Below, piece after piece: positions 34,409 to 60,381 of a stretch of 64,000 nucleotides of DNA (position 1 is its first letter; each line of letters opens with the position of its first letter). Source of the stretch: Gemmatimonas sp. (lineage in GTDB: Bacteria; Gemmatimonadota; Gemmatimonadetes; Gemmatimonadales; Gemmatimonadaceae); NCBI RefSeq assembly GCF_021298855.1, contig NZ_JAJTHI010000032.1, positions 1-64,000 of the forward strand, written 5' to 3'. Position numbers and translations under genes: made by a program. Under the pieces are notes generated by a model that saw only the letters and a program-made list of their open reading frames with translations, ran no database searches and was not told the origin of the DNA.

Positions 34409-34706
34409 GCACAAGCTCCACGTTGGAGGGTGCACGGAATGTCGCGGCGGGGTCTGACAATCCCGCGAGGCGCAAACCTTTGCCGGACTTACACTTGTCC
34501 TTCGGTTTCGATTCGGGTGCCGTCGTGCCGCGCCATCGCTCGTGCGGTGCGACCTTCCGCGACAGGGTGAGCACCCCCCCGTTGGTCCATGCCACGCCGT
34601 CCTGTATCGGGTAGTCGCCGCCCCCTGCCCGCTTCGAGAGATCCCTCACGTCGTCGACGTTCGCCTCCGCGGATACGACCGGGCATGGTGGTCGGGACAC
34701 AGGCGA

Positions 34707-36071: not shown

Positions 36072-36080
36072 CGATTCTCC

Positions 36081-38106: not shown

Positions 38107-39831
38107 TCAGTAGAACATCACGTTGAGCGCCACCATGGCCAGCATGACGGCCACGGCGAAGACACTGGGTTTCTCGTACCACGCCTTCACATCGTCCACC
38201 GGCCGCGGTGTCAGCGAGTACACCAGCCCCTCCAGCTCCGCCGCGTGCCGTGCCCGGGTGGCGAGGCTCACCACGATCGTCACGACAAAGCAGGTCGTGA
38301 ACGCCGCCACCGCGGTCCAGAAGGTCTGCGCCATCTCACTGGGATACCTGAGGACCACACCGAAGAAGCCCCCCTTCACGCCCGGGGTGGCGCCATTGGC
38401 CAACGAGATCCCATGGTGGATGGCTGGCGCGACCGTGCCCGCCACCAGCCCCCAGAACGCACCATGCCCGGTGCTGCGCTTCCAGAACATGCCCAGCGCG
38501 AACGTGGCAAAGAGCGGCGCATTCACGAATGCGAAGACCAGCTGCAGCAACTCCATGATGTTGTTGAAGGCGCCCGCCACGTAGGCGGCCGCCACCGACA
38601 GCGCGATCCCACCCACGGTGGCCACGCGCCCCATCCACAGGTAGTGCTCGTCAGTGCCGTGCTTCTTGATGTGCGCCTGGTAGATGTCGTAGGTCCACAC
38701 GGTATTGAACGCCGTGACATTGCCGGCCATGCCCGACATGAATGACGCAATGAGGGCCGTGAGCCCCAGGCCCAGCATGCCGGTGGGGAAGAGCTTCACC
38801 AGCATCATTGGAGTGGCCAGATCGTAGTCCAGCACCACGTTGCCGTTCGTGTCCAGCAGCGGCGTTCCCGCGGCCGTCAGCTTGGCGGGAATGATGTTGT
38901 CCCCCATGGCCAGCGCGATCATGCCGGGCACGATCACGAGGAACGGGAAGAACATCTTCGGCACTGCGGCAATGAGGGGAGTGCGCCGTGCCGCCGTCAT
39001 GGAATCGGCGGCCATGGCGCGCTGCACCACGAGGAAGTCGGTGCACCAGTAGCCGAACGAGAGCACGAAGCCGAGCCCCATGACCATGCCGAACCATTCG
39101 ATGCCGATGGAATTGGTCGTGGCCGAGCCCATGCCTTGCCACACGTTGGTGTAGGCGTACTCGGGGAGGCCACGCTGCACCGCGGCGGCAGACAGCTTGC
39201 TCGTCATGCCGTCCCAGCCGCCGACCTGCTTGAGCCCCACCCACACCAGAGGGGCGAAGCCGAAGACGATCATGAAGAACTGCAGCACTTCGTTGTAGAT
39301 GGCGCTGGTGAGTCCGCCCAGGGTCACATACGCCAGTACGATGACTGCCGACACCAGCACGCTGGTATTGAAATCCCACCCGAGCAGCAGGTTGAGCAGC
39401 TTCCCCATGGCGTACATGGAGATGCCGCTCGAGAAGATCGTCATGGCTGCGAAACCGAGCGCGTTGAAGGTGCGCGTCTTCTCATCGAAACGCAGCTTGA
39501 GGTACTCGGGGACGGAGCGCGCCTTCGAGCCATAGTAGAACGGCATCATGAAGATGCCGACGAATACCATCGCCGGGATGGCGCCGATCCAGTAGAAGTG
39601 ACTGGTCGCAATGCCGTATTTGGCGCCGGAGGCGCCCATGCCGATGACTTCCTGGGCGCCAAGGTTGGCCGAGAGAAATGCCAGTCCGGTCACCCACGGG
39701 GGCAACGACCGACCCGACAGGAAGAAGTCGGTGGATGTGCGCATCATGCGCCGCAGTGCCCAGCCGATGCCGAGCACCACGACGAAGTAGATGGCCATCA
39801 CGACGTAGTCGAGTGTGGTCAGCCGGGTCAT
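38107..39831 (-). CDS. Sodium:solute symporter (SSS/SGLT family)
   Basis: 'DYVVMAIYFVVVLGIGWALRRMMRTSTDFFLSGRSLPPWVTGLAFLSANLGAQEVIGMGASGAKYGIATSHFYWIGAIPAM', many TM segments. 4-nt overlap with the preceding gene's stop. Confidence 0.92.
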   Translation of the reverse strand: MTRLTTLDYVVMAIYFVVVLGIGWALRRMMRTSTDFFLSGRSLPPWVTGLAFLSANLGAQEVIGMGASGAKYGIATSHFYWIGAIPAMVFVGIFMMPFYYGSKARSVPEYLKLRFDEKTRTFNALGFAAMTIFSSGISMYAMGKLLNLLLGWDFNTSVLVSAVIVLAYVTLGGLTSAIYNEVLQFFMIVFGFAPLVWVGLKQVGGWDGMTSKLSAAAVQRGLPEYAYTNVWQGMGSATTNSIGIEWFGMVMGLGFVLSFGYWCTDFLVVQRAMAADSMTAARRTPLIAAVPKMFFPFLVIVPGMIALAMGDNIIPAKLTAAGTPLLDTNGNVVLDYDLATPMMLVKLFPTGMLGLGLTALIASFMSGMAGNVTAFNTVWTYDIYQAHIKKHGTDEHYLWMGRVATVGGIALSVAAAYVAGAFNNIMELLQLVFAFVNAPLFATFALGMFWKRSTGHGAFWGLVAGTVAPAIHHGISLANGATPGVKGGFFGVVLRYPSEMAQTFWTAVAAFTTCFVVTIVVSLATRARHAAELEGLVYSLTPRPVDDVKAWYEKPSVFAVAVMLAMVALNVMFY

Positions 39832-42800
39832 TGGGCGTGTGTCTGGAGAAAGGAGCGCGGAAACGTCAGTAGCTGCAGGGGAGCGCCGTTTCGCGCGACG
39901 GCCATCCATGGGGGCTTGCCCGCGCGCCGCACGGGAGCGAGCGCGCGCACCTGCCCGTCAATGGTCGGGGACACCGTCGCCTCGGCGGGGCGAAACCCAC
40001 CGGCCCCGTCGCCGTGCAGCAGGACACCGCGCGACGCGTCGTAGCGACCGATCACCGGCGGCACGCCGTACGCGTTGCCGGCCAGGAAGATGTCCTGATG
40101 GCCGTCGCCATTCGCGTCGGTGATGAGGGTGGCGAACGTCATCGACAGCTGCGCGGCTACGGGCAGGGGGCGCAGCGTGAAGCGCCCCCGTCCATCGTTG
40201 ATGGCCACTGCGCTCTCGAAGGTGGTCGCTTCCTTGACCTCGGCCTTCGCGATCTCGGCCGGGTCGAAGATCTCCTCGAGGCGACTCGCGCCGAAGGCCG
40301 TGAAGGTAGGATACTTCCCACGGATGGCCGGCATGAGCTTCACGAGCTCGTCGCGGCCAGCCAGGGGATACGCCACGCCCTGCACGAAGCGGGTGATGAT
40401 CTGCTTGGTGCTGCCGGTGCCGGTGAAGTCGTGCACGTACATGCGCACCGGCTCCCTGGCCGAGGCCCGGAGAACACCGTTGGTGCCGGCATTGCCGAGC
40501 ACGAGATCCGGTGCGCCATCACCATTGAGGTCGGCCACGGAGAGGCTGTTCCACCAGCCGCTGGCCGCAGCGAGTCCGCCGGCGGCGGCCTGCTCCTCGA
40601 GCCGATCACCACGATTGATCCAGATGCGCACCGGCATCCACTCGCCCACCACCACGAGATCGGGGCGCGCGTCGCCGTTCACGTCGGCCCACTGTGCCGA
40701 AGTCACCAGCCCCGCTCGTGCCAGGCCGGGAGCCACGGACTCGGTGACGTCGGTGAATTGCCCCGCACCGTTGTTCCGCAGCAGGTGGCTGGTGGGGGTC
40801 CGACCGTATTCACGGGCCACCACGCGACTGCCGACAAAGAGATCCTGATCGCCATCGCCATCGAAATCGGCAGCGGTCACGGTGCTGCCGTTTTCGCGCA
40901 CACCGGCCGGCAGGGCGTTCACGGCGCGGGTGAAGGCGCCTCGGCCGTCGTTCAGGTAGAGCCGGTCGTCCAACTCCGCGAACTCACTCCAGAACTCGTT
41001 GCCCGCGCTCACCACATAGAGATCGAGATCCCCATCGCCATCGGCATCGAAGAAGGTGGCGTCCACATCCTCTGCGGTACTGTCGACAGCGAAGGTGGCC
41101 GCACTCGATTCGGCGAAGCGGCCCGTGCGCTGCTGCAGCAACAGCGTGCCGCGCTGCCACTTGGCACCGCCGACATACAGGTCATCGCGCCCGTCGCCGT
41201 TCACATCCCCCACTGCGAGGGCGGGCCCTTCCGCTGACACCACGTGCGGCATGAGCGGTTCGCGGTTGTAGTCGAGAAAGTCGTTCTCGAGGTGCGGCAC
41301 CGCCGCGTCGACGGCGGGCGCATCGTCCGCCGTCCGCTGCAGGCGGATGGGGGCATACCGCCATTGGCCGGCGCTGCTGTCCTGATGCAGCGTGATGGAG
41401 CGGTCTGCCGCCACGTTGGTACGAATTTCGTACCGTGCATCGGGCCAGACGACGATGAGCGAATCGACGACGGCCGACGCACCCAACCCGAAGTGCAAGC
41501 GCCGATCGACGCTCGACTGAAAGCCGCGTACCGGTTGCTGCTCGAGCAGCTGGCGATGCGCGCCGGTCACGGCCGTGATCTTGGCGCCGATGCCGTCGGT
41601 GTTGCGGCCACTGCCGGCGAGTCGCACCTGCAGCCAGTGCGTGGTGTTGCCGTTGGCGCGCGCCGTGTTGCGATAGACGGCGACTGGCGCGTTGATGCGG
41701 TTGATGATCAGGTCGAGCGCACCGTCGTCATCGAGGTCCACGTACGCCGATCCGTTGCTGAACCCCTTCTCGCCGAGCCCCCACCGTTCGGCCATGTCGG
41801 TGAATCGCAGATCTCCGTCGTTGCGATAGGCATGATTGGCCAGGGGAATCTGCGGCATGCGCTGCAGCAGTTCCCGGTTCTCGGCGCGGGTCACCCCACG
41901 CGCGAGCGCCGCCTGCGCCGCTTCGTTGCCGACATAGTTGATGTAGTCCAGATCGTTCGGACGGCGATAGATGCCGTTGGTGATGAACAGATCCTTGCGT
42001 CCGTCATTGTCGAGGTCGGCGAAGAGGGGCCCCCAGCTCCAGTCACTCGCGGCAACACCGGCGAGCAGCGCCACCTCGGCGAATGTTCCGTCTCCCCGAT
42101 TGAGCTGCAGCGCATTGCGCGGGTACTGCACACTGTACCCGGCGCGGAGACGCATGTCGAAGAGATTCCACCCTTCGTAGCTCGCGGAGGTCTTGAAGAT
42201 GGACTCCTGCTCGGGCAGCATGTCCACCGTCATGATGTCGGGACGCCCATCGTCGTTCATGTCGGCCGCATCGGCGCCCATGGAGAAGCGACTCGTATGG
42301 CTGAAGGCCTGCGTGCCCACTTCGGTGAAGCGGCCACGGCAGTCGTTCAGGTAGAGGAAGTCGTTTTCCTGAAAGTCATTGGCCACGTACACGTCGAGGC
42401 AGCCATCGAGGTTCACATCGCTGGCCACCACTCCCAGACCGAATCCCTCGACCCCCCCGAAAATGCCCGCCGCCGCGCTCACATCGGTGAATCGCGCGCC
42501 GTCGTTGCGATAGAGACGGTCGCCGGCCTGCGGGTGTCGCTGATCGCGACGGGCCGCCACACCGATCTGTCGCTCCGTATGGACGGAGTGATTGAGCAGA
42601 AACAGGTCGAGGTCGCCGTCGCGATCATAGTCGAAAAACAGCGAGTGCGTGGAGAAACCGGAGAAGGCGAGGCCGTAGGCGTCGGTACGGTCGGTGAACA
42701 CGCCGGTGCCGTCGTTGATGTACAGCACGTTGCGTCCGGCCATGGTGAGGTAGTTCACCGCCGACACATAGAGATCGAGCGCGCCATCCCCATTGACGTC

Positions 42801-47500: not shown

Positions 47501-47943
47501 TAGATGTCGAGCCGTCCGTCGCCATTGACGTCGGCCAGGGTGACACCGGTGGTCCATGGCCGATCCGGCTGCACGCCGGCCGCCGCCGTGATGTCGCGAA
47601 AACGGAACGCCCCTTCATTCAGGTAGAGGCGGGGCCCGTCCTGATTGGACGTAAGGACGATCTCGGGCCGGCCGTCACCGGTCAGGTCGCCAATGGCGAC
47701 CCCGCCACCGTTGTAGAAGTTGCGGTACGTGAACACGTTGCGCTCTTGCGAGTCCACCACCCGATTGGTGAACGCCACGCCCGTGTAGGCCGAGGGCATG
47801 AGCGTGAAGAGCGTGCTGTCGACCGACGGCGCGTCAGCCAGTCGGGGAGCGCCACGTTCGCCACAGGCGGCGAGCATGAGTGCCGCCGAGCCGATGACGA
47901 GGGGCTGAAGCGCCACGATCGGGCGCGGGATGAACGAAGTCAC
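44566..47943 (-). CDS. CRTAC1-like lipoprotein: FG-GAP/VCBS repeats plus ASPIC/UnbV domain (copy A, 1125 aa)
   Basis: About 13 D.DxDG-type motifs, 'FYNGGGVAIGDLTGDGRPEIVLTSN', ASPIC block 'RHWLQLRLTGRGRNPFAVGAHVTVHAG...RGFQSSVDYALTFGLGAHTTVDSIVVLWPDG', lipobox 'LMLAACGER'. GTG start. Confidence 0.88.
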   Translation of the reverse strand: MTSFIPRPIVALQPLVIGSAALMLAACGERGAPRLADAPSVDSTLFTLMPSAYTGVAFTNRVVDSQERNVFTYRNFYNGGGVAIGDLTGDGRPEIVLTSNQDGPRLYLNEGAFRFRDITAAAGVQPDRPWTTGVTLADVNGDGRLDIYISHAGDGEPATRANTLWINQGLGADSVPTFVEQARRYGIADEGWSTHAAFVDFDRDGDLDLFVINNSPRPVNSFGVRNTRDERHPYGGDHFYRNDGDTFTDITERAGIWSTEIAFGLGVGVGDVNRDGWPDIYVANDFHERDYLYLNQKDGTFKDVLDTAMPLTSYFSMGMDIADVDNDGWPDVYTTDMMPEDEYRIKTTAMYEGWDVYMAKVRDGYGHQLMRNMLQRNNGDGTFSDVGYLTRTAETDWSWSALLADLDQDGRKDVYVTNGLARDVTSQDYVAFLADRTTMEREASAKRVDYMRLINAMSSTPIADYAFRNDGAWSFSNQADAWGLATPNISSGAAYGDLDGDGALDLVVSNVNAESFVYRNNARTLLTDRHWLQLRLTGRGRNPFAVGAHVTVHAGVDRYVQELYPARGFQSSVDYALTFGLGAHTTVDSIVVLWPDGTRTLAAGGAADRALVIAQAADALPAAPFAPSRAPALLADITARSGLGFTHTENEFVDFDRERLIPKMLSTEGPALAVGDVNGDGLDDVYLGGAKEQAGALHVQNASGAFTLVPTPAFALDAISEDVSAAFFDADGDGDRDLYVVSGGNEYSEDSPALQDRLYFNDGRGRFSKAEGRLPVALISGSVVAPADVDGDGDIDLFVGGRSVPWKYGADPRSQLLLNNGRGTFTDAVANAPGLQTVGMVTDAVWSDADGDRRVDLVLVGEWMPVTVFRNRGGGRFERMVDDVLGASDGWWNRIVAVDLDRDGRDEYLLGNLGRNTRLRATPDEPLLLIVKDFDNNGYVEQLIGMYNGGKPYPLVLRDDLIKTVPPWKARFLNYKDYALQTLDDVVPVAERQRAIVKQARRLASAVLRRGADGRFTFTDLPLEAQLAPVYGITTTDVNGDGRLDVLLAGNFDGVKPELGRMAASEGLVLLAEESGTFTAVRPADSGFRVPGQARALARLKSRSGQRVLVARNNAAPLVFSVARP

Positions 47944-48033: not shown

Positions 48034-49608
48034 TTAGTAGCCGGGGTTCTGCTTGAGCAGCGGGTTGGTTTCGATCTGGTTCTGCGGGATGGGCATGAGG
48101 ATGCGGTACGGCGCCGACGCCTGCTTGAAGAGACGGGCGTTGGTGTACGTGCCGGCACGGATCATGTCCTGACGACGCTTGGCTTCGCCGATGAACTCGA
48201 AGAGGCGCTCATCGAAGATCGCCTGTCGCACCTGGGCCTGCGACAGGTTTGCCGCCAGGGGACGGGCCGGGTTGAAGGCACGGGCACGCACCTGATTGAT
48301 GAGCTGAATGGCCGATGCCGTCTGCCCCAGCTCGTTCTGCGCCTCCGCCTTGACCATCATCATCTCGGCCAGACGGAAGTACACGAAGTCGTTGCCGTGG
48401 TTGCCGCCCTCGGTGGCCGCGGGGTCGATCGGGTACTTGTAGACGCGCGCGCCTTCGCCCTCGCCCGCCTGCGTCACATCGCGGATTTCCGGCGTGAAGA
48501 CGAGCGGGTTACCGGCGCGGTCGCGGATGGGCTGACCGGTCTTGAGGTCGACCTGCGGCCCCACGAGGAACACCCTCTTGCGATCGTCCGCGTCGTCGAA
48601 GGTGTTGTACGTGGTGGCGATGGTGGCGAAGCCGTTCCACGGCGACAGGTTGAACGAGTTGTAGTGCAACCCGCGCATCTGGAACGACATGCCGAGGCCA
48701 CCCGGGCTGCTGGTGTGGCGCACGACGAAGATGTTCTCCGGCGAATTCTCGTTGGTGGGCGAGAAGTTGGTGCGCCAGTCGGCGGGCAGGCTGAAGCGGC
48801 CCGAGTTGAGCACGCGATCGGCGGCCACGATGGCTTCGTTCCACTTGGCCGGACCGCGGGTGAGCCCCGTGGCCGTGACCGTGCCGGTGAACACCTGGGC
48901 GTTGAGGTACATGTTCGCCAGGATGGCGTCCGCCGCCGACTTGGTCACGCGGCCGTACTGGTTGGCCGGCCACGCATCGGGGAGCGCGGCGCGCGACTCG
49001 GTGAGTTCCTTTTCGATGAAGGCGAACACCTGGGCACGGGTCGCCTGTTCACGCGGCTTGACTTCGGTCGTCGTGACAATGGGCACGCCGCCGAAGAAGT
49101 CCATCAGGAGGTAGTAGTAGAACGCGCGCAGGGTGCGCATTTCGCCCACGATGGCGGCCTTGTTGGGCACCTCGGTGGTTTCGAGCGCGCTCAGCAGCAC
49201 GTTGGCACGCGCCACGCCACCGAACAGGTCGTTCCAGACGCCCGAGATGTCCTCGAGGCCGGAGCCCGAGGTGGGCGTCCAGGTGTGACGGTACAGATCG
49301 AGCCAACGGCCGTTGTCGAACCAGTCGGAGCCGCGCGTGGGCACGACGGTTTCGTCCGATGACACCTGGCTGAGGTTGTAATAGCCCCACATGGTGGAGC
49401 GGAGCTGCGCGTACACCGACGCCACGCCACCGATCACTTCATCGGCGTTCTTGTAGAAGTTGTCGGGCGTGATGGCGCTGACGGGGGTTTCGTCGAGGTC
49501 GGTGCAGCCCTGCATCGTGAACACGGCGGCGGGCGCCGCCAGCAGGGCGGCGCTGACACGGCCGGCGCGCCAGAGCGACGCGAGTCGGGAAGTGCGGGTG
49601 TTTCGCAT
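48034..49608 (-). CDS. RagB/SusD-family nutrient-uptake outer membrane lipoprotein
   Basis: 'TMQGCTDLDETPVSAITPDNFYKNADEVIGGVASVYAQLR', 'MRTLRAFYYYLLMDFFGGVPIVT', C-terminal 'LPIPQNQIETNPLLKQNPGY'-type ending (here 'LMPIPQNQIETNPLLKQNPGY'). Confidence 0.95.
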   Translation of the reverse strand: MRNTRTSRLASLWRAGRVSAALLAAPAAVFTMQGCTDLDETPVSAITPDNFYKNADEVIGGVASVYAQLRSTMWGYYNLSQVSSDETVVPTRGSDWFDNGRWLDLYRHTWTPTSGSGLEDISGVWNDLFGGVARANVLLSALETTEVPNKAAIVGEMRTLRAFYYYLLMDFFGGVPIVTTTEVKPREQATRAQVFAFIEKELTESRAALPDAWPANQYGRVTKSAADAILANMYLNAQVFTGTVTATGLTRGPAKWNEAIVAADRVLNSGRFSLPADWRTNFSPTNENSPENIFVVRHTSSPGGLGMSFQMRGLHYNSFNLSPWNGFATIATTYNTFDDADDRKRVFLVGPQVDLKTGQPIRDRAGNPLVFTPEIRDVTQAGEGEGARVYKYPIDPAATEGGNHGNDFVYFRLAEMMMVKAEAQNELGQTASAIQLINQVRARAFNPARPLAANLSQAQVRQAIFDERLFEFIGEAKRRQDMIRAGTYTNARLFKQASAPYRILMPIPQNQIETNPLLKQNPGY

Positions 49609-49634: not shown

Positions 49635-52600
49635 TCAGAACTGGACGCGGAGTCCCGACGTCAGTGTGCGGGCACGCGGGTAAACGAGGTAGTCGACGCC
49701 ACGCGACGCGAGGCCGGCATCGACGAACACCTCTGGATCGTAACCGGTGTACGGCGTGAACAGCAGGAGGTTGTCACCCGACACGTAGAAGCGGGCGGTG
49801 TTGGCCCGGGTTCCCGGGATCTTGAAGGTGTAGCCCACCGTGACGTTCTGGAGGCGGAAGAACGTGCCGTCCTCGATCCAGCGCGACGAGTAGATGGCCG
49901 GCTCCGTGAGGCCGTCGGTCTGGCTGAGCGCGCTGCGCAGGAAGTTGCGGCCCTGCAGCACGGCCGACTGGGTCGAGTAGACCAGCGCCGTGTTGTTGAA
50001 CACGTCGCGGCCGAACTCGCCACGCCAGAGGTAGCTCATGTCGAACTTGCCCCAGCGAAGCCGCCCGTTCCAGCCCAGGCTGAACGCCGGGTTCGCGTCG
50101 CCGATGACCCCGAAGTCGTCACCGTCGGGCGACGTGGTCGTACCGTCGCGGGTGCGGCTGGTGATCTGGCCGTTGGCGTCGCGCGTCACGCGATAGTTGT
50201 TGAAGACCTGCTTGCCCTGGGCGTCCACGTTCACGAATTCCGGACCCCAGAAGGTGCCGAGCGGGCGGCCCGGGATGATGCGCTGCGCGGTGTTGCCCGA
50301 CTGGCCCTGCCCCGATATGCCGGAGGTGGTGATGAACGACCGGCCACCCAGGTCATCGACCTGGTTGCGTTCGATCGAGGCCACGATGCCGGTGTTGAAC
50401 GAGCGGTCCTTCTTTTCGATCAGGTTGGCATCGAAGGTGAACTCGACACCGGTGTTGTGCAGGCTGCCCACGTTCTCGAGACGGGTCGGCACGAGCGCCG
50501 GCTGCGGCACGGCGACCGTCAGCAGCAGGTCGGTGGTGTTCTTGCGGTAGTACTCGATGGAGCCGGTGTACTTGTTGTCCTTGAAGCCGTACTCCGCAGC
50601 GATGTTGTACTGCGCCGTCTGCTCCCACTTGAGATTCGGATTCTCGTTGCGCGTGGGCACGACACCCGTCACCACGTCGTTGCCGAACGGATAGCGCGCA
50701 CCGTTGTTCGGCTCGAGCAGGATGAGCGACGAGTACGGCGACACGGCCTGGTTGCCCTGGAGCCCATAGCCCGCGCGCAGACGCAGGTTGGAGAAGCCCT
50801 TGCCCTGCATCCAGCTTTCGTCGCTCACCTTCCAGCCCACGGAGAAGGCGGGGAAGACGGCCCACTTGTTGCCGGCACCGAATCGCGACGACCCGTCACG
50901 ACGGATCACGCCGGTGAGGAAGTAGCGATCCTTGAAGCTGTAGTTGGCCTTGCCGAAGAAGGAGACCAGGCGGCTCTGCTCGCGGAAGGAGAAGGGCGCC
51001 TCGAGTGTGGCCCCACCGCCAAGGTTGTTGTAGCTGAAGGCGTCGGTCAGGAAGTTGCGCCCTTCCGCGCCGAACTCGCCATTGTCGAAATCGCTGTACT
51101 CGTAGCCACCCACCACTTCGAGTTCCTGCGTATCGGAGATGCGCGGGGCGAAGGTGAGGAGCGTCTGCAGCGTGTTGTTGGAGAGGTTGCGGTTCACCTG
51201 ACGCGCCCGGCCATTCCACTCGGCGCCAACCGCGCTGGCGCGCGGCAGGTACGTGCGACGCACGCCGCTGGTGCGGTCGGTGCCGACGTTCACGGAGGCC
51301 GTGAGGAAGCTGGTCACGCTGTAGGTGGCCTGCAGGTTGCCGAGCGTACGGTTGGTGGTGGCGTCATCGGCCACCTGCTCCGCCACGCCCACCGGGTTGC
51401 GCACCGACTGGCGCCCCGGACCGATTTCGTAAAACGCCGACTGACCGCCCGTGGTGGTCCGGATGGGCTGCGTGGGGTTGAAGATCACCATGTTGGTGAA
51501 CACGCCACCCTCGAAGCCACCCGTGTTCTCGAACGGGAGGTAATCGTTGTCGACCTTCGACGAGGTCAGGTTGAAGTTCATGCGCAGCTTGCCGTCCACG
51601 GCCGTGTGGTTCGCGTTGAGGCGCCCCTGGAAGCGGCGGAAGCCGTTCGAGATGACCACACCGTTCTGATCGAGGAAATTGACCGACGCCCGGTACTGCG
51701 TGGTCGCCGTGCCGCCCGAGAACGCGAGGTTGTGGTTGATCGTGGAACTGTTGCGCATGAGCGCGTCTTCCCAGTCCGTGTTGGCGGAGCCGAGGTTGGC
51801 GAGGGCGCTTTGCTGCAGCCGCCCGGCCGTCACGAGCCCTCGCACGAAGTCGCGATACTCGTTGCCGGAGAGCACGTCGAGGCGGTTCGAGGGCGCCGAG
51901 GCCGCCACGAACGTTTCGTACTCCATGGTCGAGACGCCGCCGGCGCCACGCTTGGTTTCGATGAGCACCACGCCGTTGGCGCCGCGGGAGCCGTAGATGG
52001 CCGTGGCCGAGGCGTCCTTGAGGACGGTGATGTTCGCGATGTCGCTCGGGTTGAGCATGTTGAGCGGATTACGCGCCAGCGCGGGGCCGCCGCCAATGCC
52101 GATACCCGAGGCTTCCGTCTGGTCGTTCTGAATCGGCACACCGTCGATCACGTAGAGCGGATCGTTGGAGGCCGAAATGGACGTGCCGCCACGAATGCGG
52201 ATCTGGGCGCCGCCGCCCGGCTCACCGTTGTTGGCGATCACGTTCACGCCTGCCACGCGGCCGGTGAGCAGGCCGGTCGCGTTGGGCTGCACCCCCACGT
52301 TCGCATCGTCGCCCTTGATCGTGGCGACCGCGCCGGTGATGGCTTCCTTGCGCTGTTGGCCGTAGCCGGTGGTGACGATCGCCGTGAGCTGCGCGGCGAT
52401 GGCGGTCAGCGGGACTTCCACGCTGGCCTGCCCGTTGGCCGTTACCGTGACCGACACCTCCTTCGCGGAGTAGCCGATGCGCGTGACGCGCAGACGCTGC
52501 TGCCCGGCCGGCACTGCCGGCAACAGGAAGCCACCGTCGTTACGCGTGTAGGTGCCGATCTGTGTCCCGACGACCTGGACCGATGCGTTCGCAAGAACGC

Positions 52601-52721
52601 CGGCCGTCGCGGAGTCAACCACGCGGCCAGAGACTCTGCCCGTTTGCTGGGCACTGACCTGGCTTGCCGTGAGCAGCGTACCCGCTGCTGCTGCGGCCAA
52701 CCAACGGACGCCTACCGCCAT
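49635..52721 (-). CDS. SusC/RagA-family TonB-linked outer membrane protein
   Basis: Carboxypeptidase-regulatory-like N-terminus 'GRVSGRVVDSATAGVLANASVQVVGTQIGTYTRNDGGFLLPAVPAG', plug 'GRVAGVNVIANNGEPGGGAQIRIRGGTSISASNDPLYVIDGVPI', 'LKDASATAIYGSRGANGVVLIETK'. Confidence 0.95.
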   Translation of the reverse strand: MAVGVRWLAAAAAGTLLTASQVSAQQTGRVSGRVVDSATAGVLANASVQVVGTQIGTYTRNDGGFLLPAVPAGQQRLRVTRIGYSAKEVSVTVTANGQASVEVPLTAIAAQLTAIVTTGYGQQRKEAITGAVATIKGDDANVGVQPNATGLLTGRVAGVNVIANNGEPGGGAQIRIRGGTSISASNDPLYVIDGVPIQNDQTEASGIGIGGGPALARNPLNMLNPSDIANITVLKDASATAIYGSRGANGVVLIETKRGAGGVSTMEYETFVAASAPSNRLDVLSGNEYRDFVRGLVTAGRLQQSALANLGSANTDWEDALMRNSSTINHNLAFSGGTATTQYRASVNFLDQNGVVISNGFRRFQGRLNANHTAVDGKLRMNFNLTSSKVDNDYLPFENTGGFEGGVFTNMVIFNPTQPIRTTTGGQSAFYEIGPGRQSVRNPVGVAEQVADDATTNRTLGNLQATYSVTSFLTASVNVGTDRTSGVRRTYLPRASAVGAEWNGRARQVNRNLSNNTLQTLLTFAPRISDTQELEVVGGYEYSDFDNGEFGAEGRNFLTDAFSYNNLGGGATLEAPFSFREQSRLVSFFGKANYSFKDRYFLTGVIRRDGSSRFGAGNKWAVFPAFSVGWKVSDESWMQGKGFSNLRLRAGYGLQGNQAVSPYSSLILLEPNNGARYPFGNDVVTGVVPTRNENPNLKWEQTAQYNIAAEYGFKDNKYTGSIEYYRKNTTDLLLTVAVPQPALVPTRLENVGSLHNTGVEFTFDANLIEKKDRSFNTGIVASIERNQVDDLGGRSFITTSGISGQGQSGNTAQRIIPGRPLGTFWGPEFVNVDAQGKQVFNNYRVTRDANGQITSRTRDGTTTSPDGDDFGVIGDANPAFSLGWNGRLRWGKFDMSYLWRGEFGRDVFNNTALVYSTQSAVLQGRNFLRSALSQTDGLTEPAIYSSRWIEDGTFFRLQNVTVGYTFKIPGTRANTARFYVSGDNLLLFTPYTGYDPEVFVDAGLASRGVDYLVYPRARTLTSGLRVQF

Positions 52722-52977
52722 AAACCGATGCCTCCATGGGGCTGGAAAGGACCTGCGACCGGGTGGGGAATCACTGTCGATACAATTCGGACCCATGGGT
52801 CCGGACTCCATCTATAATGAGAGGGTGGTCGCCAAGTGTGGTGGGTGAGCCCTCGCGGGCTCGATCGCTCACGCCCGTGACCGCCACCGGCGGCACGACC
52901 ATGAGCGAGAGGAGAACATGTTCGACCCGCGACCCGGGATGGGGGTGAGTCGCGTGTAGGAAGGGATGTGAAACGCC

Positions 52978-53006
52978 ATGAAACAACGATGCACAAGAAC
53001 TGTCAA
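52978..53006 (-). promoter_or_regulatory. Candidate sigma-70-like promoter for the susCD-CRTAC operon
   Basis: On the - strand: TTGACA (53006-53001), 17-bp spacer, TTTCAT (52983-52978). Implies a roughly 250-nt 5' leader to the ATG at 52721. Confidence 0.45.
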
Positions 53007-53197
53007 GATTGAATCGTGGGAACTTTTGCTTTTCGCGTCCCCAGAACGGGTGCTGGCGCCCGTTCGGTCCACACGCAAGTTTCCCCCGCACGTCTGCGTT
53101 TCATCCGTTACATCCCGCCTGCCGACATCCGGCGCGCCCCTCTCGCGCTCCTGCCCACCCACCCCCGGTCCTGGCGCTTCCACACGAGGCGCCGGCC

Positions 53198-53222
53198 CTG
53201 CAACTTATCTAAAAGGTTGCAG
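53198..53222. promoter_or_regulatory. Candidate operator, 7-11-7 inverted repeat
   Basis: CTGCAAC-TTATCTAAAAG-GTTGCAG, AT-rich spacer, 40 bp upstream of the proposed GTG at 53263. Confidence 0.4.
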
Positions 53223-53262
53223 TGAAACACTTTCCATTGTCCAATACCCTTCGCCTGCGCCT

Positions 53263-55683
53263 GTGAGCCTGCTCGCGCTCTCCCTCGTCGCACAGCTGGC
53301 GGCCGCCGCCCGCCCGTCGCCGCCCGTGCTCGCGTTTCCGGAAGCCGGCCTCGATGACAGCAGCGCCTACGCCGGCTATGTCACCCGATTCCACCGGGAC
53401 GTCGACGGCAACACCGTGCAGCTGTATCTCGATCGCCGGCAGGGGCGCATCGTGCAGTTGCTTGCCAACGGGGAAAACGAGAGCGTGGGGTTCTCCGCGC
53501 GCTCCGCCAACGGGACCCCGGCGCCCGTTCGCTGGCATTCCACCGACGCGCGGGTCTGGCGGGAGGGGCGGCGGCGGCTGTTTCAGTACGACCTCGAGGT
53601 ACCGGAGTCCGAAGTCCACGTGGGGCGCTTCGTGCTGGGGAGCATGCGCGTCGAGCGCGACGTGCAGTACTTCAAGGAGCATCTCAAGCCGTTCACCGAC
53701 TCCGCGTACGCGCTCGCCGAGTACCCGGCGCTGGCCGCCGCTCTGGACGCACAGCCAGTCCCCGTGCGCCGCGCCGCGCTCGCGGCGCTGCGGGCCAGTT
53801 CCCTGGCGCAGCTGCGCGCCCGCTTCCTCCCCCGCCTCGCACGGCGCACTCCCGGCGACAGCGTGGTACTCATCGAGCAGTTGGCCCTCGACGGCCTCGA
53901 CACACTGCGCCTGCGGCTCTCGGCCCTCGACGGCGGGCGCGTTGTGGCGTCCGATGCGCGCGTGGTGACGCTGCAGGCAGCCCACGGACACCCGCTCCGT
54001 TTCCGCGTGACCATAAGTACGACCGGCCGGGCGCTCACCCCCCTCACGCGCCAGGAGATCTTCACGGAGGATTTCCTGGCGTGGACCCGCGACCTGCAGA
54101 CGCGCGGCGACGCGACGCGCGCCCGCTGGATTGAACGGCAGGTCACGGGCGTCGAGCTTCTCGCCTCGCGCGAGAAGCTCATGGCCGGACTCCCCACCTA
54201 CGCCACGTACTTCGGGCGGGACATGCTGCTGTCGGCACTCATGATGCAGCCGATCTGGCGGCCCGAAATGAGTGAATTCGTCATCGCCGCCGCGCTCCGC
54301 AAGCTGTCCCCCACGGGCGAAGTGAGCCACGAGGAGGCGCTCGGCGGGCAGGCCATCCGCGAAGCGGCCGCCGACGCCACCCACCTGCTGCGCGCCGCCG
54401 ACAGTGCCGCGGTCGCGCCCGGTGGGCGGTCACGGGCCGAGGCGCTGCGGGCGCGCGCAGTGCGCGTGCTGCAGGCGCGACGCATGACGCGAGAGAACTA
54501 CCACATGGTCGACGACGAGTACCAGCTGCCGCTGCTGGCGGCGCGGTATCTCGCCGACCGCCGGGTGAGCGCCGCGCGCAAGCGCACCTGGCTCACCGGT
54601 CGCGAAGGCGCGCAGACCCGTCTGGCGTTGCTGCTGGCGGAACTCGCGGTGCTCGCCGATCGCAGCGCCCCGTACGTGGCGCACCCGGTGACCTCGAACT
54701 TCGTGCCCTTCGCCCCCCGCGAAGCGACGGCGACCGCCTACGAGGGCGTGCCGCGCTGGTTCGCGCAAAGCTGGCGCGACAGTGGCGCCGGCTATGGCAA
54801 TGGCAAGTACGCCATGGATGTGAACGCGGTGTATATCCCGCATGCGCTCGCGGCCACCCAGCAGATCCTGCAGGCGCTGCGGGATCTCGGCCTCCTGTCG
54901 CCCGCCACGTGGTCCGCCGTGCCGGCGCTGCGAGCCGACACTCCGCTGGGTCGCTACGCGCGCGATGCGGCGACGCTGTCGAACGCCATCCGCATCTGGC
55001 GTGGTGCCATCGAGGCGTTCGTCGTACGCCGTACACCCGCCGAGGTGCAGCAGCAGGTGGAGGCGCGGATTGCCGTGATGCCGGCGGACGAACGCCGCTA
55101 CTGGCGCGCGTTTCCGCGCACCGGCGAGGGAATCGAATTCTTGGCTCTCGCGCTGAACGATCGCGGCGAACCGATCGGCGTGGTGAACAGCGATCCCGCC
55201 ACGCGCCTGTTTCTCGACGGACTCATGGCGCCGGCCGCCGACAGCCCGGTGAACCGGGCCGCCCTGCGCCGCGATGCGTCGCTCTTCGCCCGGGAGTATC
55301 CGGAAGGGCTGCTCGTCCCGGCGGTGGGCGCGGTCGTGGCCAACGACGCGTACGCGACACCACCGATCTGGCAGGCCTTTCTCGATGATCCCTATCACGG
55401 GCCGCGCGTCGTGTGGGGACGGGAAGTGAACCTGTTCCTGCTTGGCGTCGCGAGTCACCTGCCGCTCGTGCGGGACGATCGCACCGCCACGGAGTTGCTG
55501 CACACGGCGGCCACGCGGGTCCGCGAGGCCGTGGCGGCCTCCGGGTTCCGCAGCGAGCTGTGGAGCTATGCGTTTCCCAATGGGCGGCCCCACCCCACGC
55601 GCTACGGTAGCGGTGGCGATGTGCAGTTGTGGAGCACGACCGACCTCGCCGTGCAGTACGTGTGGGCGAGAATGCCGCAGTAG
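53263..55683 (+). CDS. Secreted protein of unknown function, (alpha/alpha)6/glucanohydrolase-like fold suspected
   Basis: Signal peptide '(V/M)SLLALSLVAQLAAAARPS', 'GLPTYATYFGRDMLLSALMMQPIWRPEMSEFVIAAAL', start of the malQ operon. Start codon uncertain (ORF open from 52978). Confidence 0.7.
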   Translation: MSLLALSLVAQLAAAARPSPPVLAFPEAGLDDSSAYAGYVTRFHRDVDGNTVQLYLDRRQGRIVQLLANGENESVGFSARSANGTPAPVRWHSTDARVWREGRRRLFQYDLEVPESEVHVGRFVLGSMRVERDVQYFKEHLKPFTDSAYALAEYPALAAALDAQPVPVRRAALAALRASSLAQLRARFLPRLARRTPGDSVVLIEQLALDGLDTLRLRLSALDGGRVVASDARVVTLQAAHGHPLRFRVTISTTGRALTPLTRQEIFTEDFLAWTRDLQTRGDATRARWIERQVTGVELLASREKLMAGLPTYATYFGRDMLLSALMMQPIWRPEMSEFVIAAALRKLSPTGEVSHEEALGGQAIREAAADATHLLRAADSAAVAPGGRSRAEALRARAVRVLQARRMTRENYHMVDDEYQLPLLAARYLADRRVSAARKRTWLTGREGAQTRLALLLAELAVLADRSAPYVAHPVTSNFVPFAPREATATAYEGVPRWFAQSWRDSGAGYGNGKYAMDVNAVYIPHALAATQQILQALRDLGLLSPATWSAVPALRADTPLGRYARDAATLSNAIRIWRGAIEAFVVRRTPAEVQQQVEARIAVMPADERRYWRAFPRTGEGIEFLALALNDRGEPIGVVNSDPATRLFLDGLMAPAADSPVNRAALRRDASLFAREYPEGLLVPAVGAVVANDAYATPPIWQAFLDDPYHGPRVVWGREVNLFLLGVASHLPLVRDDRTATELLHTAATRVREAVAASGFRSELWSYAFPNGRPHPTRYGSGGDVQLWSTTDLAVQYVWARMPQ

Positions 55684-55712: not shown

Positions 55713-57179
55713 ATGTCGTTTGCTCGCGCAGCAGGATTGCTGCTGCACCCCACCTCGCTCCCCGGCCCCAGCGGGATCGGCGACTTCGGTCCCGATGCGC
55801 ACCGGTTCGTCCAGTGGCTCGCCGACGCCGGCCTGAAGATCTGGCAGGTGCTGCCCCTCGGCCCCACGGGGTATGGCGATTCGCCGTATCAGTGCTTCTC
55901 GGCGTTCGCCGGCAATCCGCTGCTCATCCACGTCCCCGGGTTCAACGGCCCGTCCGGGGGGAGCGACCGCACGGTCGATTTCGGCGCCGTCATTCCGGCC
56001 AAGCAGGCGGCGCTGGCGCAGTGGCTCGACACGATCCCCTTTGACGACCGCATCCGCCACTTCGTGCACGAGCACGAGGGGTGGCTCCCCGATTACGCCC
56101 TGTTCATGGCGCTCAAGCAGGCGCACGGCGGGGTATCATGGACCGAGTGGGAGGCCGGCGCGCGGCGGCGGGATCCGCAGGCACTCGAAGACTGGCGCCG
56201 GCGACTCGCGGCCCCGATCGAGCGCCTCTACAAGGAACAGTGCGTCTTCTACGCACAGTTTCACGCCTTGCGGCATGCGTGTCGGGAGCGTGGCATTCGG
56301 CTCATGGGCGATGTCCCCATTTATGTGGCGCACGACTCGGCCGACGTGTGGGCGAACCCCTCACTGTTCCGGCTGCGCGACGACGGCACGCTGACGGTGC
56401 AGGCAGGCGTGCCTCCCGACTACTTCAGCGAGACCGGACAGCTCTGGGGCAACCCGCTGTACGACTGGGAGCGGATGGCGGCGGAGGGGTATCGGTGGTG
56501 GATCGCGCGCATGCGCGCGGGTCTGGCCCTCTTCGATCTGGTCCGCCTCGATCACTTCCGCGGTTTCGAGGCGTACTGGGAGGTGCCAGGCGACGCGCCC
56601 ACCGCCGTGAACGGACGCTGGGTGCAGGGCCCCGGGGCGGCGCTGTTCCATACGCTCACCGCCGCGCTGGGCACACTGCCCATCATCGCCGAGAACCTTG
56701 GCCTCATCACGCCCGAGGTGGAAGCGTTGCGGGCGCAATTCGGGTACCCGGGCATGGCCATCCTGCAGTTCGCCTTCGACGGCCAGGACTCGAACTTCAT
56801 CCCGCACCGGTATGTGCGCGATCTCGTCGTCTACACCGGGACCCACGACAACGACACGACGATGGGCTGGTGGCACTCCACCGGCGAAGGCGACAGCACG
56901 CGGTCGGCCGACGCCGTGGCTCGCGAAAAGGCCTTCGCGCGACGCTATCTCGATACGGACGGCACCGACATGCACTGGACGCTCATTCGCGCCACGCTCG
57001 CGTCGGTGGCCAACACGGTGCTCGTACCCATGCAGGATGTCCTCGGGCTGGGCAGCGAGGCGCGCATGAATCTGCCCGGACGTCAGTCGGGCAACTGGGG
57101 TTTCCGCTTCACGTGGGCGCAACTCACGCCTGCGATCACCGAGCGTCTACACGAGCTCACTTCGGTCTACGAACGATGA
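55713..57179 (+). CDS. malQ: 4-alpha-glucanotransferase
   Basis: 'AAGLLLHPTSLPGPSGIGDFGPDAHRFVQWLADAGLKIWQVLPLGPTGYGDSPYQCFSAFAGNP', 'VRLDHFRGFEAYWEVPGD', 'IAENLGLITPEVEALRAQFGYPGMAILQFAF'. Confidence 0.97.
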   Translation: MSFARAAGLLLHPTSLPGPSGIGDFGPDAHRFVQWLADAGLKIWQVLPLGPTGYGDSPYQCFSAFAGNPLLIHVPGFNGPSGGSDRTVDFGAVIPAKQAALAQWLDTIPFDDRIRHFVHEHEGWLPDYALFMALKQAHGGVSWTEWEAGARRRDPQALEDWRRRLAAPIERLYKEQCVFYAQFHALRHACRERGIRLMGDVPIYVAHDSADVWANPSLFRLRDDGTLTVQAGVPPDYFSETGQLWGNPLYDWERMAAEGYRWWIARMRAGLALFDLVRLDHFRGFEAYWEVPGDAPTAVNGRWVQGPGAALFHTLTAALGTLPIIAENLGLITPEVEALRAQFGYPGMAILQFAFDGQDSNFIPHRYVRDLVVYTGTHDNDTTMGWWHSTGEGDSTRSADAVAREKAFARRYLDTDGTDMHWTLIRATLASVANTVLVPMQDVLGLGSEARMNLPGRQSGNWGFRFTWAQLTPAITERLHELTSVYER

Positions 57180-58537
57180 GCGCATCCACCGGTTCCGCCG
57201 CCACGGCGGCTACCCGTCCGGTCGCACAGGCGGGCGCCGCAACGAACTTCTGGGCCATCTGGAACATGAGCTTCGGCTTTCTCGGCATCCAGTTCGGCTG
57301 GGGGCTGCAGATGGCCAACATGAGCGCCATCTACGAGTACCTGGGGGCGAAACCCGACGAGGTCCCCATGCTGTGGCTCGCCGCGCCGCTCACGGGGCTC
57401 ATCGTGCAGCCGATCATCGGCCACATCAGCGATCGTACATGGTCGCCGCGCTGGGGACGTCGCCGTCCGTTCTTCATGATCGGTGCGGTGCTCAGCTCGC
57501 TCGCGCTGATCGCGATGCCCAACAGCAGCGCCCTCTGGATGGCCGCCGGCCTGCTGTGGGTGCTCGATGCCTCGATCAACATCTCCATGGAGCCGTTTCG
57601 CGCCTTCGTGGCCGACCTGCTGCCGGTGAAGGAGCGCACGCGCGGTTTCGCCATGCAGTCGCTGTTCATCGGTCTGGGCGCGGTCATCGCCTCCGCGATG
57701 CCGTGGATGCTCACCAACTGGTTCGGCGTGGCGGCCAGCGCGCCGGGGACCATTCCCAGTACGGTGAAGCTGTCGTTCTATGTCGGAGCCGTCGCGTTCT
57801 TCGGCGCCGTGATGTACACGGTGCTCACCACGAGGGAGCAGCCCCCCGCCGATCTCGCGGCCTTCGAACGGGAGAAGGCGCAGAGCGCCGGCTTCCTCGC
57901 GGGAGCGCGCGAGATCCTCACCGCCGCGCGCGCGATGCCCGCCACGATGCGCCAGCTCGCGCTCGTGCAGATGTGCACGTGGTTCGGGCTCTTCTGCATG
58001 TGGCTGTACTTCGGCACGGCGGTCGCCACCAACGTGTTCGGCGCCACCGACCCGAGCGATCCACGCTACCAGCAGGGTATCGAGTGGGGCGGCGTGTGCT
58101 TCGGCGTGTACTCGGCCGTGACGTTCGTCTTCTCGTTCTTCCTGCCACCGCTCGCGAAGTCGCGGGGGCCGCGCGCAACACATGCGCTCTGCCTGCTTGC
58201 CGGTGCCGCCGGCCTGGCGAGCGTGTCCATCATCGAGACGCCTGCGTTGCTGCTGCTGTCCATGGTGGGCGTGGGCATCGCCTGGGCCAGCACGATCTCC
58301 ATGCCGTACGTGATGCTCTCCACGTCCCTTCCGGCCGGCAAGACCGGCGTGTACATGGGGCTCTTCAACTTCTTCATCGTGATTCCGGAGATCGTGGCGT
58401 CGCTTGGCTTCGGCTGGGTGATGAACAACTGGCTCGACAACAACCGCATGGCCGCCGTGGTGGCCGGCGGCGTGTTCATGGTGCTGGCGGCGTTGCTGGT
58501 GATGCGCGTCCAGGTACCCACAGAGGTCACCGCGTGA
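57176..58537 (+). CDS. MFS sugar transporter (SLC45/GPH maltose-like)
   Basis: '[74 protein letters not shown]'. 4-nt overlap with the malQ stop. Confidence 0.9.
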
Positions 58538-60381
58538 CGGACGGGCGACGCGTATGCGGCCACCTGCTCGTGGCCGCCCTGCTGCTGTTGCCGACCATGG
58601 CGGCGGCGCAGGCGCCGGTGGTGAGCAAGGTGGAACCGCCCAACTGGTGGGCGAACCACAGCATCAACCCCGTGCGGCTGCTCATTCGCGGCGCCAACCT
58701 CGCGGGGGCGCGCGTCACGTGCCCGCGGCTCGCCTGCGGAGCCGTCGCGGTCAACGCGGCCGGGACGTATGCCTTCGTGGACGTGCGCATTGCGCCGACC
58801 GCCCGCCCGGGTGACTACCCGCTCACGCTGCGCACGGCGCAGGGCACGGCACGGATCCCGTTCACGATCTCGCCGCAACTGCCGGTGATGGGCCGCTTTC
58901 AGGGCTTCGGCCCTGATGATGTGGTGTATCTGCTCATGCCGGATCGCTTCGCGAACGGCGACACCACCAACGACCGCACGCCCAAGTCCCCGGCGATCCT
59001 CGATCGCGGCAAGCCGCGCTTCTATCACGGCGGTGACCTGGCGGGTGTGCGTGAGAAGCTGCCCTATCTCCAGCAGCTCGGCATCACGGCGATCTGGATG
59101 AACCCCATCTACGACAACAACGACGGGGTCGATACGCTCGAGGTGTACGACCGGCAGCCGACTACCGGATACCACGGTTACGGCGCGACCGACTTCTACG
59201 CGGTGGACGAGCACCTCGGCACGATGGCCGAGTTCAAGGCGCTGGTGGACGACGCGCACAAGGCGGGGATCAAGGTCATCCTCGACATGGTGGCCAATCA
59301 CAGCGGCCCGTATCACCCGTGGGTGAAGGATGCCCCCACGCCCACGTGGTACCACGGCACGCAGGCGAAACATCCGAACAACACGTGGCAGACGTGGACG
59401 CTCGCCAACGCCTACGCGCACGACTCGCTGCGGCGCGCCACGCTGGACGGGTGGTTCATCAACATTCTGCCGGACTTCAACCAGGACGATCCGGAGGTGG
59501 CCCGCTATCTCATCCAGAACACGCTCTGGTGGGTGGGGATGAGCGGCATGGATGGGATTCGCCAGGACACGTGGCCGTATGTGCCGGTCCGCTTCTGGCG
59601 CGACTGGATGACGGCCATCAAGCGGCAGTATCCGACGCTGCGGGTGGTCGGTGAAGTGTTCGATGGCGATCCGGCGATGATCCGGTTTTTCGAAGGCTCG
59701 AACCCCACGCACGAGGGGGTCAAGACCGGCGTGGACTATCTGTTCGACTTCCCGCTGTATTACCCCATCCGCGACGCGTTCATTGGTGGCAAGCCGATCA
59801 GGGCCGTCGCGCAGATGCTCATGCGGGACCACCTCTATGATCGACCCGACGCACTCATGCCGTTCCTGGGCTTGCACGACGTGTCGCGGTTCATGGGGGA
59901 ACAAGGCGCGACCATCGAGGGGCTCAAGCTGGCATTCACCACGGTGCTGACCACGCGGGGCACCCCGCTCGTGTACTACGGCGATGAAATCGCCATTCCG
60001 GGAGGGCCGGATCCGGACAACCGCCGGGATTTCCCGGGTGGGTGGCGCAGCGACACGGTGAATGCGTTCGACGCCGCCGGTCGGACCCCGCCGCAGCAGG
60101 CGGTGTGGCGGCACGTCAATACCCTGCTGCGTACGCGTGCAGCGCAGCCGGATCTGCGCCGCGCCCGCACCGAGCACCTGGTCGTGACCGACCAGCAGTT
60201 CGTCTATCGTCGCGGACGCGTCGTGGTGGCCATGAACAACGATACCACCGCCGCGACCGTCGTCGTGCCGTCGGTCGTGCGTGGCACCGACGTGTTGCGC
60301 GCCTGTCCGCCGCCGGTGGTGGCGAATGGCCAGACGACATTCCGCCTGCTGGCTCGCAGCAGCTGCGTGTTCACGCCCTGA
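58534..60381 (+). CDS. Secreted GH13 alpha-amylase-family enzyme (cyclomaltodextrinase/neopullulanase-like)
   Basis: N-terminal 'VSKVEPPNWWANHSINPVRLLIRGANL' (Cyc-maltodext_N-like), 'VILDMVANHSG', 'GMDGIRQDTWPYV', 'VVGEVFDGDP', 'FLGLHDVSRF'. GTG start, 4-nt overlap with the preceding gene. Confidence 0.93.
   Translation: MTDGRRVCGHLLVAALLLLPTMAAAQAPVVSKVEPPNWWANHSINPVRLLIRGANLAGARVTCPRLACGAVAVNAAGTYAFVDVRIAPTARPGDYPLTLRTAQGTARIPFTISPQLPVMGRFQGFGPDDVVYLLMPDRFANGDTTNDRTPKSPAILDRGKPRFYHGGDLAGVREKLPYLQQLGITAIWMNPIYDNNDGVDTLEVYDRQPTTGYHGYGATDFYAVDEHLGTMAEFKALVDDAHKAGIKVILDMVANHSGPYHPWVKDAPTPTWYHGTQAKHPNNTWQTWTLANAYAHDSLRRATLDGWFINILPDFNQDDPEVARYLIQNTLWWVGMSGMDGIRQDTWPYVPVRFWRDWMTAIKRQYPTLRVVGEVFDGDPAMIRFFEGSNPTHEGVKTGVDYLFDFPLYYPIRDAFIGGKPIRAVAQMLMRDHLYDRPDALMPFLGLHDVSRFMGEQGATIEGLKLAFTTVLTTRGTPLVYYGDEIAIPGGPDPDNRRDFPGGWRSDTVNAFDAAGRTPPQQAVWRHVNTLLRTRAAQPDLRRARTEHLVVTDQQFVYRRGRVVVAMNNDTTAATVVVPSVVRGTDVLRACPPPVVANGQTTFRLLARSSCVFTP

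What the first reader, a model, noticed from the sequence alone, without database searches (positions are those of the whole stretch)
53263..55683. Uncharacterised roughly 800-aa secreted protein leading the malQ-MFS-GH13 operon
Seen: signal peptide, 'PTYATYFGRDMLLSALMM', 'YQLPLLAARYLADRRVS', and 29 bp spacing to malQ. It matches no GH family I can name with confidence, though the pattern is reminiscent of six-hairpin (alpha/alpha)6 enzymes. Operon context suggests alpha-glucan processing.
Basis: partly seen in the sequence, partly recalled or inferred. Interest (0 to 1): 0.6.

Follow-up and report, generated by a model that had tools for sequence, protein, structure and literature searches.

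The report
Unnamed exported alpha-glucoside-cleaving enzyme family
This gene encodes a member of a widespread but unnamed family of exported sugar-cutting enzymes, distantly related to glycogen-debranching enzymes and usually found next to trehalose-degrading genes, so it probably releases glucose from trehalose-like or maltodextrin-like sugars outside the cytoplasm.

Summary
Window 53263-55683 is one GTG-started 806-aa gene, 29 bp before malQ and followed by 4-bp-overlapping MFS and GH13 genes. No Pfam, NCBIfam or single-sequence PDB hit exists, but it is not an orphan: 57 of 298 sampled Gemmatimonadota genomes carry it, as do Ignavibacteria, Calditrichota, Neomarinimicrobiota, KSB1, Zixibacteria and Alphaproteobacteria. 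AlphaFold2 (pLDDT 90, pTM 0.90) gives an N-terminal beta-sandwich plus a helical barrel of the (alpha/alpha)6 type. Profile-profile comparison links the barrel to GDE_N_bis-type amylo-alpha-1,6-glucosidases (97-98%; shuffled and reversed controls below 1%), which link on to GH133 and GH37. The inferred catalytic pair, D506 (WRDS) and E765 (SELWSY), is invariant. Elsewhere the family sits with GH37 trehalase, GH65, GH15 trehalase-like, SSF and ABC sugar transporters; 37 of 43 GH37-bearing genomes carry it, within 33 kb wherever both share a contig (24/24), and it is fused to GH37 once. In this window the island's trehalase is deleted, leaving a ~31-codon scar at 34554-34654. Best reading: an exported inverting alpha-glucosidase; substrate untested.

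The parts
53263..55683 (+). 806-aa family member (exported beta-sandwich + helical barrel putative glycoside hydrolase), GTG start, TAG stop
53263..53310 (+). probable signal peptide, residues 1-16 (weak n-region in this copy)
   Evidence: sequence; homologues
53311..54042 (+). N-terminal beta-rich domain, residues 17-260
   Evidence: AlphaFold2 model; no sequence match to GDE_N_bis N-domain
54049..55674 (+). helical barrel of (alpha/alpha)6 type, residues 263-804
   Evidence: profile match
54211..54222 (+). FGRD motif (317-320), glucose-binding subsite motif by homology
   Evidence: invariant; aligned to FGRD of GDE_N_bis type and 7vma
54328..54336 (+). HEE motif (356-358)
   Evidence: invariant including alphaproteobacterial homologues
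54778..54780 (+). D506 of WRDS, inferred general acid
   Evidence: invariant; aligned to WKDS/WMDA/GWDFSSRW aspartates
55393..55398 (+). YH (711-712) of YHGPRVVW, equivalent of YHNGSVWP
55555..55557 (+). E765 of SELWSY, inferred general base
   Evidence: invariant; aligned to PELF / AEIFDA glutamates
55624..55632 (+). QLW (788-790), equivalent of QAW
55713..57179 (+). malQ, 4-alpha-glucanotransferase (GH77)
   Evidence: E 1.6e-166
57176..58537 (+). MFS/GPH-like sugar transporter, 4-bp overlap with malQ
58534..60381 (+). GH13 with cyclomaltodextrinase N-domain, 4-bp overlap
49635..52811 (-). SusC-type TonB-dependent receptor, divergent
48034..49608 (-). SusD-like lipoprotein
38107..39909 (-). 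SSF sodium:solute symporter of the same island
34554..34654 (-). relic of the C-terminus of a GH37 trehalase (DVRDLSKRAGGGDYPIQDGVAWTNGG), rest deleted
   Evidence: 76% DNA identity to the intact trehalase of sister genome G039 at the same syntenic place

Best explanation
The gene encodes an exported (probably periplasmic) glycoside hydrolase: an N-terminal beta-sandwich followed by an (alpha/alpha)6-type barrel. By homology, glucose is held in subsite -1 by the FGRD loop, D506 protonates the leaving group and E765 activates water, i.e. an inverting, exo-acting alpha-glucosidase that releases glucose from the non-reducing end of alpha-glucosides that enter through SusC/TonB receptors. Across the family the likeliest substrates are trehalose-type or other small alpha-glucosides; in Gemmatimonas, where it heads a malQ-MFS-GH13 operon and where this lineage has lost the island's trehalase, maltodextrin or a branched alpha-glucan oligosaccharide is as likely. 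Shown by computation: family, predicted fold, remote homology, invariance of the pair, gene linkage, trehalase relic. Inferred: export, inverting mechanism, exo mode, substrate.
For: hhalign of 99 family sequences against 14 GDE_N_bis-type amylo-alpha-1,6-glucosidases: 97.3% (local, E 2.5e-11) and 98.3% (global, E 1.1e-13), aligned along the barrel with every motif in order; the part after residue 375 alone still 91%; 10 column-shuffled and 1 reversed control at or below 0.8%. Those enzymes match GDE_C/GH133 at 99.3% and GH37 at 93.6%, with D506 and E765 falling on the WMDA aspartate and AEIFDA glutamate; in Candida glabrata GDE the mutants D1241A and E1492A lose this activity (PMC4837477). 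Profile search of the PDB finds, at E below 0.1, only an archaeal amylo-alpha-1,6-glucosidase (7vma) in three co-linear motifs, E 6.9e-4. AlphaFold2 pLDDT 90.3, pTM 0.90; Foldseek best hits are GH65, GH94, GH63, GH139, GH100. F317-D320, H356, E357, E358, D417, W504-S507, D644, H712, W718, E765, Q788, W790 are conserved into alphaproteobacterial homologues at 28-31% identity. Neighbours in 83 loci are sugar importers, GH37, GH65, GH13, GH15, malQ. Co-occurrence with GH37 in 298 genomes: odds ratio 77, Fisher p 7e-27, 24 of 24 same-contig cases within 33 kb. One ORF fuses it to GH37.
Against: No activity data. Direct hhalign to archaeal-type GDE_C, GH37, GH15 and GH65 is below 1%, so the link rests on one intermediate family. 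Foldseek TM-scores for whole chains are low (0.2-0.35, rmsd 13-20 A; best TMt 0.52 to GH100 InvA), and the active-site loops 309-319, 488-493 and 784-789 are low-confidence. I had no coordinates to measure the D506-E765 distance. The N-domain has no detectable sequence relative. The Fisher p ignores shared ancestry. The window strain itself has no trehalase.
Confidence: 0.72

Rival explanations
1. It is specifically a trehalose-pathway enzyme in all hosts: it trims a trehalose-containing oligosaccharide or conjugate (glucosyl-, maltosyl-trehalose or similar) to trehalose or glucose, or is itself a trehalase, and the neighbouring GH37/GH65/GH15 enzyme finishes the job.
For: GH37 trehalase near the gene in many Gemmatimonadota and in Ignavibacteria, Calditrichia and Novosphingobium; FAM-SSF-trehalase and TonB-FAM-trehalase operons; fusion with GH37 in L073; 37 of 43 GH37-bearing genomes carry it; trehalase relic in the window's own island.
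Against: 19 of 56 family-bearing genomes lack GH37; in this strain the trehalase was lost while this gene stayed intact; the adjacent genes here are malQ and GH13; GH65 neighbours match a kojibiose-hydrolase model, below its cut-off.
Confidence: 0.4
2. It is an exported debranching or glucoamylase-like enzyme (amylo-alpha-1,6-glucosidase function) serving starch/glycogen breakdown; this genome has no GH15, GDE_C, MGH1-like, GH37 or GH65 hit to do the job.
For: Closest detectable family is annotated amylo-alpha-1,6-glucosidase; operon with malQ, MFS, GH13 conserved in Gemmatimonas; absence of alternatives.
Against: I found no characterised member of the intermediate family in the literature searched; the operon context is restricted to one genus; elsewhere the neighbours are trehalose-type.
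Confidence: 0.35
3. It is a catalytically inactive or non-hydrolytic member (phosphorylase, sugar-binding or sensor protein) of the (alpha/alpha)6 superfamily.
For: Top Foldseek hits are phosphorylases of GH65/GH94/GH149; sequence divergence is extreme.
Against: Both putative catalytic acids are invariant in nearly 100 sequences and in alphaproteobacteria; phosphorylases normally work on cytosolic phosphate whereas homologues carry signal peptides; the nearest sequence relatives are hydrolases.
Confidence: 0.08

Closest known systems
GDE_N_bis-type bacterial amylo-alpha-1,6-glucosidases (PF14742 + MGH1-like/GDE_C)
   Same: Barrel motifs in order: AGxPxxxTxFGRD, HE, W-K/R-D-S, ALALD, YHxxxVW, ExL/F, QxW
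   Different: About 19% identity, no Pfam hit, unrelated or unrecognisable N-domain, insertions around 370-500, signal peptides and trehalase/TonB context
GH133 archaeal-type amylo-alpha-1,6-glucosidase (7vma; GDE_C PF06202)
   Same: FGRD and YH..VW motifs, ALALD..GRP motif, acid/base pair by transitivity
   Different: No direct profile match to GDE_C; those are glycogen enzymes of the cytoplasm as far as I know
GH37 trehalase (PF01204)
   Same: Fold class; Asp of GWDFSSRW and a downstream Glu map to D506/E765 through the GDE_N_bis family; physical neighbour and one fusion partner
   Different: No direct profile match; lacks the GGRFxExYYWDSY and QWDxPNGWP signatures; has an extra N-terminal beta domain
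GH65 / GH63 / GH94 / GH100 (structure only)
   Same: Foldseek E 1e-5 to 5e-3, helical barrel, most with a beta-sandwich before it
   Different: Sequence profile does not match GH65; TM-scores low

Membership tests
GH133 / GDE_C | Match to PF06202 profile | tested here: not met
   0 of 30 members hit; hhalign 0.2-0.6%
GH133 / GDE_C | Asp/Glu acid-base pair in WxD(A/S) and (A/P/S)E motifs | tested here: met
   D506, E765 invariant and aligned through the intermediate family
GDE_N_bis-type amylo-1,6-glucosidase | Homologous catalytic barrel | tested here: met
   97-98%, controls below 1%
GDE_N_bis-type amylo-1,6-glucosidase | PF14742 N-terminal domain | tested here: not met
   no Pfam hit; N-domain alone 0.3%
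GDE_N_bis-type amylo-1,6-glucosidase | amylo-alpha-1,6-glucosidase activity | not testable with these tools
   needs enzyme assay
GH37 trehalase | PF01204 match and trehalase signatures | tested here: not met
GH15 glucoamylase/trehalase | PF00723 match | tested here: not met
   hhalign 0.1%
GH65 | PF03632/PF03636 match | tested here: not met
   hhalign 0.1%; structure-level resemblance only
(alpha/alpha)6 glycoside hydrolase superfamily | Helical barrel after a beta-sandwich | tested here: met
   AlphaFold2 pLDDT 90; Foldseek E down to 1e-5, with low TM-scores

The most novel reading that the evidence does not exclude
A new glycoside hydrolase family (no Pfam, NCBIfam or solved representative), spread over at least six phyla of soil, sediment and marine bacteria, with a new specificity for a trehalose-containing or other alpha-glucoside that reaches the cell through TonB/SusCD receptors and is finished by a co-encoded trehalase.
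Probability: 0.45. Interest if true: 0.65.

Novelty: new variant of a known kind. Interest (0 to 1): 0.5.

Why it matters
The family is labelled 'hypothetical protein' where I could see an annotation (WP_062784170.1), yet it sits in the same island as trehalase in most trehalase-bearing Gemmatimonadota sampled. Placing it gives a testable catalytic pair, a predicted fold and a short substrate list, and would fill a blank in how these abundant soil bacteria use trehalose or other alpha-glucosides. It is also a case where a partner gene has been lost (the trehalase scar) while the enzyme stayed, which makes the division of labour testable by comparing sister species.

Tried and rejected
Single-sequence searches of Pfam, NCBIfam and PDB: nothing. 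Phages and viral contigs: none. A GH37 match at hhalign E 1e-56 in a first run was an artefact of a fusion protein (L073) left in the alignment; after trimming it vanished. Direct GH15, GH65, GDE_C relations: not supported. A window ORF at 34542-37238 (+) first looked like a long GH100 protein, but its first part is antisense to an MFS gene; the likely gene is about 36111-37238. No sigma-70-like promoter, terminator or Rfam RNA near the gene. Literature searches found no description of the family.

Full report
OBSERVATION. The ORF, quoted peptides and spacing are exact. The gene starts at GTG 53263: third-position GC is 0.87 inside and 0.55 in the in-frame extension 52978-53262, and that GTG is conserved in related loci. 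malQ starts 29 bp downstream; malQ/MFS and MFS/GH13 overlap by 4 bp each, so the four genes look co-transcribed. SusC and SusD are divergent on the other strand.

FAMILY. The protein has no Pfam, NCBIfam or PDB single-sequence match, and its relatives have no consistent Pfam match either. It is nevertheless conserved: 57 of 298 Gemmatimonadota genomes, and 80 kept loci of 114 confirmed in a genome-wide scan, including Ignavibacteria, Calditrichota, Neomarinimicrobiota, KSB1 and Zixibacteria. More distant relatives lie on Novosphingobium and Niveispirillum plasmids, 28-31% identical, the first annotated 'hypothetical protein'.

FOLD AND CATALYTIC PAIR. AlphaFold2 with 68 sequences gives pLDDT 90.3 and pTM 0.90: a beta-rich domain (17-260) and a helical barrel (263-804). 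Foldseek's best matches are carbohydrate enzymes with beta-sandwich and (alpha/alpha)6 domains of GH65, GH94, GH63, GH139 and GH100; the E-values are convincing as a group but TM-scores are low, so this supports the superfamily and not a family. Profile-profile comparison is more specific: 97-98% to GDE_N_bis-type amylo-alpha-1,6-glucosidases over the barrel, with shuffled and reversed controls at or below 0.8%, and 91% even without the FGRD region. That intermediate family matches GDE_C at 99.3% and GH37 at 93.6%. Through it D506 of WRDS aligns with the WMDA aspartate of GDE_C and the GWDFSSRW aspartate of trehalase, and E765 of SELWSY with the AEIFDA glutamate. In Candida glabrata GDE the mutants D1241A and E1492A lose glucosidase activity (PMC4837477); that these are the same two positions is my inference. 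Both residues and about a dozen others are invariant down to the alphaproteobacterial relatives. A PDB profile search finds one convincing entry, archaeal amylo-alpha-1,6-glucosidase 7vma, by three co-linear motifs (E 6.9e-4).

GENE COMPANY. In 83 loci the commonest neighbours within about 10 kb are SSF symporters (39 loci), FG-GAP/ASPIC proteins (34), SusC (32), GH37 trehalase (19), GH13 (17), GH15 (14, TreH1-like), ABC sugar-binding proteins (13), TonB receptors (12) and GH65 (9). Typical operons are FAM-SSF-trehalase, TonB-GH65-FAM, TonB-FAM-trehalase and FAM-SBP-permeases-MalK. The malQ-MFS-GH13 arrangement was found only in the Gemmatimonas group. The tree shows repeated changes of company. 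One ORF (L073) fuses the family to GH37 with a roughly 10-residue junction and without the trehalase's own N-terminus; another (L045) fuses it to GH3. Among 298 genomes 37 have both this family and GH37, 19 only the family, 6 only GH37 (Fisher p 7e-27, ancestry not corrected); in all 24 genomes where both lie on one contig they are within 33 kb.

THE MISSING TREHALASE. In the sister genome G039 the same island carries an intact GH37 trehalase between an MFS and a VWA gene. In the window the corresponding 271-bp gap holds only about 31 codons of the trehalase C-terminus (DVRDLSKRAGGGDYPIQDGVAWTNGG; 76% DNA identity over 101 bp, E 5e-16). In G078, the closest relative, the same comparison skips that stretch, so it seems to lack even the relic. 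The window's genome has no other GH37, GH15, GH65, GDE_C or MGH1-like hit at E 0.001. So this lineage lost the trehalase and kept the studied gene.

READING. I take it as an exported inverting exo-alpha-glucosidase (0.72). Whether its substrate is trehalose-type (0.4) or maltodextrin/branched-glucan-type (0.35) cannot be settled by sequence. It should not be filed as GH133, GH37, GH15 or GH65, each of which failed a direct test; it probably works like them. The likely outcome of a CAZy-type classification is a separate family, but dbCAN and AlphaFold DB were not available.

Noticed in passing
window 34554-34654 (-): Relic of a GH37 trehalase C-terminus in the gap between a VWA gene and an MFS gene; intact trehalase at the same place in sister genome G039.
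   Followed up: yes
window 36111-37238 (+): GH100-like (alkaline/neutral invertase-like) ORF, only the C-terminal 90 residues match Pfam; probably another (alpha/alpha)6 enzyme of the same island, start codon unsure.
   Followed up: partly
window 52961-52990 and 53097-53112: Conserved intergenic block GAAGGGATGTGAAACGCCATGAAACAA and an inverted near-copy (CGTTTCATCCGTTACA) between the divergent SusC and studied genes, kept in five Gemmatimonas loci: candidate operator pair.
   Followed up: partly
window 39828-47943 (-): Two related FG-GAP/ASPIC (CRTAC1-like) proteins flanking a PAP2 / vanadium-haloperoxidase-like gene (43211-44569), a block that recurs beside SusCD in many of the related loci; role unknown.
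   Followed up: no
L041:3633-5399 and L096:7127-8983: Two recurrent neighbouring ORF clusters (about 590 and 620 aa) of the family with no Pfam match; may be antisense shadow ORFs or real unknowns.
   Followed up: no
L045:9950-14308: Single ORF fusing the family to a GH3 enzyme; a second GH3 follows directly.
   Followed up: partly
L123:7344-12378: Novosphingobium operon TonB receptor - family member - tryptophan halogenase-like FAD protein - treA; the halogenase-like gene in a trehalose operon is odd.
   Followed up: no
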